Virus record (IMG/VR): IMGVR_UViG_3300035698_011201
Coordinates: 1 to 48,319 of that record
Direction: 5' to 3' (one strand)
Length of the DNA stretch: 48,319 nt
From: a virus
Of this stretch, positions 27,233 through 27,312 are shown piece by piece. How positions within the stretch are numbered: the stretch's first letter is position 1; each line of letters begins with the position of its first letter. Under the pieces are notes generated by a model. The model saw only the letters and a list, made by a program, of their open reading frames with translations. It was not told the origin of the DNA and did not search any database. The position numbers were made by a program, and so were the translations under genes.

Positions 27233-27312
27233 GCATCCGTATACCCTCTGATTACGAATCAGGTGAAAGGTTAACTGGACACATGGAGGTTCGACTCCTC
27301 TCGGGTGCGCCA
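27233..27312 (+). tRNA. tRNA-Arg(ACG) with displaced D arm
   Basis: Acceptor GCATCCG/CGGGTGC, G73 and CCA; anticodon stem TCTGA/TCAGG, loop TTACGAA; T arm GGAGG/CCTCT. Only seven bases lie between acceptor and anticodon stem, so there is no D arm in its place. Instead GTG-AAAGGTTAACTGGA-CAC, which looks like the D arm of tRNA-Arg(TCT), follows the anticodon arm. The only ACG tRNA seen. Confidence 0.8.

What the first reader, a model, noticed from the sequence alone, without database searches (positions are those of the whole stretch)
27233..27312. tRNA-Arg(ACG) with D arm after the anticodon arm
Acceptor, anticodon and T arms are sound, but the D arm is missing from its place and GTG-AAAGGTTAACTGGA-CAC, very like the D arm of tRNA-Arg(TCT) (GTG-AAACTGGATATAA-CAC), sits between anticodon and T arms. 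This looks like an arm swap, or a D-less tRNA with a long variable arm. It is the only ACG tRNA in the window.
Basis: partly seen in the sequence, partly recalled or inferred. Interest (0 to 1): 0.75.

Follow-up and report, generated by a model that had tools for sequence, protein, structure and literature searches.

The report
Phage tRNAs with swapped core segments
This phage gene looks like a real arginine tRNA in which two internal segments have changed places along the chain while the base contacts of the normal tRNA fold are kept, and it belongs to a large, so far unannotated family of such tRNAs in phages, found also once in a bacterial chromosome.

Summary
The odd tRNA-Arg(ACG) at 27233-27312 is real and is not damage. 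BLAST and pattern scans found the same architecture in Streptomyces, Microbacterium and crAss-like phages, in hundreds of IMG/VR places (187 distinct sequences) and in one Chitinophaga chromosome. Instead, in canonical numbering, the order is 1-9, 22-47, 10-21, 48-73: the 5' D-stem strand plus D loop has traded places with the 3' D-stem strand plus anticodon arm. The split D stem pairs across the anticodon arm and covaries perfectly (561/561 cells). Tertiary pairs 15-48, 18-55 and 19-56 covary too. Position 20 is A in all 73 Arg-anticodon members and never A in the 114 others (113 Ile-type, one Val), matching known identity elements. ARAGORN finds 2 of 187, Rfam has no family, and phage records leave them unannotated or mislabelled. 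I conclude they are functional tRNAs with a non-circular permutation of the tRNA core. Structure is shown by covariation; expression, charging and decoding are inferred. No report of this architecture was found in the held literature.

The parts
27233..27239 (+). acceptor stem 5' strand (positions 1-7), GCATCCG
   Evidence: pairs with 27302-27308; compensatory changes in all 7 pairs across 61 diverse relatives
27240..27241 (+). U8 A9
   Evidence: invariant in 187 distinct members (T8 was fixed in the search patterns)
27242..27246 (+). positions 22-26 (U22 A23 C24 C25 C26): D-stem 3' strand, directly after A9
   Evidence: 23-25 pair with 10-12 in 187/187 members with four or more pair types at each position
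27247..27263 (+). anticodon arm (27-43), anticodon ACG at 27254-27256
   Evidence: U33 and A37 intact
27264..27268 (+). connector TGAAA (former variable loop), linking the anticodon arm to position 10
   Evidence: NGAAA in most members; replaced by 7-12 nt connectors in other lineages
27269..27272 (+). positions 10-13 (GGTT): D-stem 5' strand, displaced to after the anticodon arm
   Evidence: G10-C25, G11-C24, U12-A23; APC-corrected mutual information ranks 16, 6 and 8 of 3081
27273..27284 (+). displaced D loop (A14 A15 C U G18 G19 A20 CACA) and U48
   Evidence: A15-U48/G15-C48, G19-C56/A19-U56 and G18-U55/A18-G55 covary; A20 in every Arg member
27285..27301 (+). T arm, loop TTCGACT
27302..27312 (+). 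acceptor 3' strand, discriminator G73, encoded CCA

Best explanation
The gene encodes a functional tRNA-Arg(ACG) that folds into the normal L shape with a non-circularly permuted core. In canonical numbering the chain runs 1-9, 22-47, 10-21, 48-76. Blocks 10-21 (D-stem 5' strand plus D loop) and 22-47 (D-stem 3' strand, anticodon arm, variable loop) have exchanged places. The three new joints (9 to 22, 47 to 10, 21 to 48) connect residues that touch each other in the core of ordinary tRNA (9 with 23, 45 with 10-25, 21 next to the 15-48 layer), so the fold survives while the topology changes. Charging by ArgRS uses A20 in the displaced D loop plus C35/G36 and G73. The tRNA then decodes CGN codons during infection. 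Shown: homology, secondary structure, core tertiary contacts and identity-element coupling, all by covariation. Inferred: expression, CCA maturation, charging, decoding and the 3D shape.
For: Unannotated homologues in named phages. In IMG/VR 82 of about 98 pattern matches have exactly the same 17-nt spacing, whereas bacterial-genome matches are spread at random with one true copy. 187 distinct members: pairs 10-25, 11-24 and 12-23 standard in 561/561 cells with four to five types each, although these positions were left free in the scan. RNAalifold finds the same fold unaided. In A1, 98.7% of cells pair, and the covariation score is 0.922 versus 0.217 for shuffles and at most 0.17 for slid partners. 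The mutual-information top 19 of 3081 column pairs are all model pairs except 35-20, the identity coupling. N20 is A in 73/73 Arg-anticodon members and never A in the other 114; this matches published bacterial identity sets, Arg A20 and Ile U20/A73 (PMC9976931). Hold-out model R2 finds the window copy at E 1e-16. Topology scan: 240 hits, 0 in reversed sequence.
Against: No expression, charging or structure data exist here. Single-sequence folding alone is unconvincing (z -1.1). The search patterns fix some positions (8, 27, 45-46, part of the D and T loops), so their invariance is partly built in, and acceptor, anticodon and T-stem pairing was used as a filter. U13/U22 do not pair in nearly all members. 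Several phages also carry canonical tRNAs of the same amino acid.
Confidence: 0.88

Rival explanations
1. A tRNA mimic rather than an elongator: the RNA folds like tRNA-Arg or tRNA-Ile but acts as a decoy for host tRNA nucleases or as a regulatory RNA.
For: Found almost only in phages; the same phages often carry RNA-repair genes or Ro; viral tRNA-like structures are known non-circularly permuted mimics (PMC11472068).
Against: Anticodon loop (U33, purine 37), discriminator, A20/U20 identity coupling and often an encoded CCA are all kept (62 of 187), which a decoy for one nuclease would not need; the copies sit inside tRNA clusters.
Confidence: 0.08
2. D-armless tRNA with a long variable arm, comparable with metazoan mitochondrial tRNAs.
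For: No D arm in the usual place.
Against: No hairpin in the variable region is conserved; a D stem exists across the anticodon arm with perfect covariation, and the D loop keeps its contacts to the T loop.
Confidence: 0.02
3. A decayed or mis-assembled tRNA pseudogene.
For: ARAGORN misses it; Rfam score below the cut-off.
Against: The same architecture in unrelated phages with compensatory changes everywhere; 82.1 bits to the family model, with every conserved residue intact.
Confidence: 0.01

Closest known systems
Canonical class I bacterial tRNA-Arg / tRNA-Ile (Rfam RF00005)
   Same: Acceptor, anticodon and T arms, U8, A14, R15-Y48, G18-U55, G19-C56, A20 or U20 identity, 5-nt connector in place of the variable loop
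   Different: Order of blocks 10-21 and 22-47 exchanged; D stem closes around the anticodon arm; U27/U43 mostly unpaired, so the anticodon stem is mostly 4 bp
Bacterial Y RNA YrlA and circularly permuted tRNA genes / two-piece tmRNA
   Same: Permuted tRNA-like order
   Different: Those are circular permutations (new ends). Here the ends are normal and inner segments are exchanged; no processing is needed (PMC10085705, PMC11472068)
Viral 3' tRNA-like structures (TYMV, BMV)
   Same: Non-circularly permuted tRNA fold
   Different: Those are pseudoknotted mimics at genome ends of plant RNA viruses. These are stand-alone tRNA genes of DNA phages with a fully nested helix set
Type-SGC and other permuted hammerhead ribozymes
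   Same: Natural non-circular permutation of a known RNA fold (PMC10085705)
   Different: A ribozyme, not tRNA
D-armless mitochondrial tRNAs
   Same: No D hairpin after position 9
   Different: Those lost the D arm; here it is rewired and keeps its contacts

Membership tests
functional tRNA | 7-bp acceptor stem, 5-bp T stem with TTCRA-type loop, 7-nt anticodon loop with U33 | tested here: met
functional tRNA | tertiary core contacts 8-14, 15-48, 18-55, 19-56 | tested here: met
   15-48, 19-56 and 18-55 covary (15-48 MI rank 18, 19-56 rank 30); 8-14 is invariant U-A. Sequence test only.
functional tRNA | aminoacylation identity elements matching the anticodon | tested here: met
   A20 73/73 for Arg anticodons, not A in 114 others; A73 in all Ile-type members; identity sets from PMC9976931
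functional tRNA | expressed, charged and used by the ribosome | not testable with these tools
   needs infected-cell RNA and biochemistry
canonical cloverleaf tRNA (RF00005) | D arm as a hairpin between positions 9 and 26 | tested here: not met
   only 7 nt between acceptor and anticodon stems; D stem closes around the anticodon arm
D-armless tRNA | absence of D stem and D-loop/T-loop contact | tested here: not met
   D helix 561/561 paired; G18/G19 covary with 55/56
YrlA / circularly permuted tRNA | 5' and 3' ends inside the tRNA body, acceptor strands joined | tested here: not met
   ends are at the normal acceptor stem with discriminator and CCA

The most novel reading that the evidence does not exclude
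A new topological class of translationally active tRNA, built by exchanging two inner segments, carried by many phages and by bacterial RNA-repair islands because the rewired core or 4-bp anticodon stem escapes host nucleases or modification-dependent defences that attack tRNA-Arg and tRNA-Ile.
Probability: 0.35. Interest if true: 0.96.

Novelty: new variant of a known kind. Interest (0 to 1): 0.92.

Why it matters
The segment order of tRNA is usually taken to be universal. A natural family with a different chain topology but, judged by covariation, the same fold shows that the L shape can be reached by another path. It makes testable how RNase P, synthetases, modification enzymes, EF-Tu and the ribosome read shape rather than order, and it gives a new scaffold for tRNA engineering. 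Practically, such tRNAs are missed or mislabelled in phage genomes, so published phage tRNA counts and codon-compensation analyses are incomplete for Arg and Ile. The restriction to Arg and Ile (one Val) and to phages, with one RNA-repair-like chromosomal island, points to a tRNA-targeting conflict that can now be looked for.

Tried and rejected
Exact 31-nt pattern of the window copy: no hit in IMG/VR. Pattern GCATCCG-TTACGAA-GGTTCGA: four hits, all chance matches that lack the family's core. Relatives through the neighbouring protein 27325-28668: none; through nrdB: 80 loci, none with a tRNA cluster. Single-sequence folding: uninformative, z -1.1. D-less and pseudogene readings: contradicted by covariation. 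Assembly damage: contradicted by the same architecture in complete genomes of isolated phages (Mildred21, Karimac, A3Wally, Kehishuvirus 'tikkala'). Cellular spread: 0 of 299 Pseudomonadota, 0 of 299 Bacillota and 1 of 296 Bacteroidota genomes; only 16 candidates per genome were scored, so sensitivity is limited. Ten literature searches gave no report of this architecture; subscription papers and most preprints are not held.

Full report
WHAT IS THERE. Window 27233-27312 reads GCATCCG TATACCC TCTGA TTACGAA TCAGG TGAAA GGTTAA CTGGACACAT GGAGG TTCGACT CCTCT CGGGTGC G CCA. Acceptor, anticodon (ACG) and T arms are sound and CCA is encoded. Only seven bases separate the acceptor and anticodon stems, so no D hairpin fits there, and 21 bases separate the anticodon and T arms. 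ARAGORN lists 40 RNA genes in the window but not this one; Rfam's tRNA model gives 25.8 bits, below its cut-off. The window is a 48 kb IMG/VR fragment that carries a phage ribonucleotide reductase, a permuted tmRNA and about 40 tRNAs.

RELATIVES. A sensitive BLAST against isolated phages gave 50 records, all unannotated at the site in the listed rows: Streptomyces phages (85-88% or 80% identity) and Microbacterium phages (83%). Aligned, they share a core, [acceptor]TATACCCT[anticodon arm]TGAAAGGTTAA..GG...CAT[T arm], while acceptor, anticodon and T stems differ by compensatory changes; one has an Ile anticodon. A scan of IMG/VR with the two core words and a free gap gave about 98 matches, 82 of them with exactly a 17-base gap. 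The same scan of 84,980 bacterial and archaeal genomes gave gaps spread as chance would, with one true copy, on a contig that carries phage-like genes. Further lineages use other connectors (CATTAACC, GCATTGTA, GCATAAC, CCTCATAATCA, GCAGTATAATTA) with the same order of parts. A topology scan with any connector gave 240 matches in 3.9 Mb of held sequence and none in the same sequence reversed.

THE FOLD. Mapping to canonical numbering gives the order 1-9, 22-47, 10-21, 48-73. The 3' strand of the D stem (22-25) follows A9 directly and leads into the anticodon stem. After the anticodon arm a short connector leads to the 5' strand of the D stem (10-13), then the D loop (14-21), then position 48 and the T arm. 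The D stem therefore closes around the anticodon arm. In all 187 sequences pairs 10-25, 11-24 and 12-23 are standard pairs (561 of 561), with GC, CG, AU and UA all seen at each; these positions were unconstrained in the scan. In 61 diverse sequences (A1) the whole structure is 98.7% paired with a covariation score of 0.922, against 0.217 in shuffles and at most 0.17 with partners slid. RNAalifold proposes the same structure unaided. APC-corrected mutual information over 3081 column pairs puts 11-24, 12-23 and 10-25 at ranks 6, 8 and 16, and the Levitt pair 15-48 at rank 18 (A-U 151, G-C 27, A-C 5, G-U 4); 19-56 is at rank 30. When C56 becomes U, G19 becomes A (five members); when U55 becomes G, G18 becomes A (three members). 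So the displaced loop makes the elbow contacts of an ordinary D loop.

WHY IT SHOULD STILL BE AN L-SHAPED TRNA. In ordinary tRNA, 9 touches 23-12, 45 touches 10-25, and 21 lies on 8-14 beside 15-48 (established knowledge of the tRNA core). The new joints 9-22, 47-10 and 21-48 therefore join neighbours in space. This is inference; no 3D model was made.

WHAT IT CARRIES. Anticodons found are Arg (ACG, TCT, CCT, TCG, GCG; 73 sequences), Ile-type (TAT, GAT, CAT; 113) and one Val (TAC). Position 20 is A in 73/73 Arg members; in the others it is U 112, G 1, C 1. The pair 35-20 is the only pair outside the modelled helices and tertiary contacts among the 19 strongest couplings. A20 is the main determinant of bacterial ArgRS, and U20 with A73 belongs to the Ile set (PMC9976931). 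All Ile-type members have A73. The CAT members carry U20 (one G20) like Ile, which suggests lysidine-modified Ile2 (inference). The window copy has A20, C35, G36 and G73: tRNA-Arg. CGT, CGC and CGA make up about 23 per 1000 codons in the window's main ORFs.

HOLD-OUT TEST. A covariance model from 31 Ile-type sequences only (R2), which contains no Arg member, finds the window copy at 65.1 bits (E 1e-16); the next window tRNA has 30 bits. With the full model, the swapped members listed with phage records score 70-93 bits and canonical tRNAs at most about 34; of the few intermediates that I read out, L413, L415 and L418 are swapped forms with longer connectors, while L416/L417 were not resolved. 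Thirteen control phage records have nothing above 26 bits.

DISTRIBUTION AND ANNOTATION. Named carriers include Streptomyces phages (Mildred21, Karimac and many others), Microbacterium phages A3Wally and Zooman, and the crAss-like Kehishuvirus 'tikkala' of Bacteroides. In Mildred21 the Arg(ACG) and Ile(GAT) copies are unannotated and the Arg(TCG) copy is annotated as tRNA-Phe(gaa). The annotated tRNAs of that region include only one canonical Arg (CCT). ARAGORN of 187; Rfam has no family of its own and scores the members near the tRNA cut-off. One copy, Ile(TAT), lies on a 2.27 Mb Chitinophaga contig in a stretch with TROVE/Ro60, RNA ligase, an HD plus AAA_33 kinase-like protein, RtcB and further tRNAs.

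FUNCTION. Most likely these are working elongator tRNAs. Retention of identity elements, anticodon loop and acceptor end across many sequences argues against a mere mimic. Why the swap is kept is open. Their near restriction to phages, their co-occurrence with RNA-repair genes (suggestive and confounded) and the published idea that phage tRNAs resist tRNA-cutting defences (PMC10264068) make evasion of nucleases plausible but untested.

KNOWN OR NEW. Circular permutations (YrlA, permuted tRNA genes, two-piece tmRNA), viral tRNA mimics and D-less mitochondrial tRNAs are known. A 2023 paper stated that no non-circular permutation was known in natural RNAs before permuted hammerheads (PMC10085705). 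A review of non-canonical tRNAs does not mention permutation (PMC7609411). No report of this tRNA architecture was found among the held papers; subscription papers could not be searched.

Noticed in passing
29871-29996: YrlA-like (Y RNA-like) RNA: 3' tRNA half, linker, then 5' acceptor and D arm, flanked by AGGATCC/GGATCCT; Rfam RF02553 38.7 bits, E 6e-6, below the gathering score.
   Followed up: partly
28780-28900: Another candidate Y RNA-like or permuted tRNA-like RNA: T arm CACGG-TTCGATT-CCGTG, with flanks TAGGTTGT/ACAACCT that pair.
   Followed up: no
27033-27215: A second permuted tmRNA-like or Y-like element just upstream of the swapped tRNA: CGCCTCC+ACCA joined by a long stem to GGGGGCGAAATAGATTGAC; weak alpha_tmRNA match (14.3 bits).
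   Followed up: partly
3-390: Phage-encoded alphaproteobacterial-type permuted (two-piece) tmRNA, tag ANDNDFVMAAAA.
   Followed up: partly
26692-26870: Possible tRNA halves GCTCGGT... and ...ACCGAGT-A-CCA on either side of tRNA-Val(TAC): a tRNA interrupted by another tRNA, or a remnant.
   Followed up: no
26026-26060 and 26640-26700: Two copies of a motif TTAAGGAAACCGT...GAACGGAACCA of unknown nature.
   Followed up: no
17598-21307: NrdA large subunit split by what looks like an intein (CVSS...VVHNS) spread over three ORFs.
   Followed up: no
L424:2776-15261: Chitinophaga chromosome island with TROVE/Ro60, RNA ligase, HD+AAA_33, M41 peptidase, RtcB and a tRNA cluster that includes a swapped tRNA-Ile(TAT).
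   Followed up: partly
L427:31368-31443 (MF155946.1 91367-91442): Swapped tRNA-Arg(TCG) annotated in GenBank as tRNA-Phe(gaa); the neighbouring 'tRNA-OTHER' at 86379-86453 is also a likely divergent member.
   Followed up: partly
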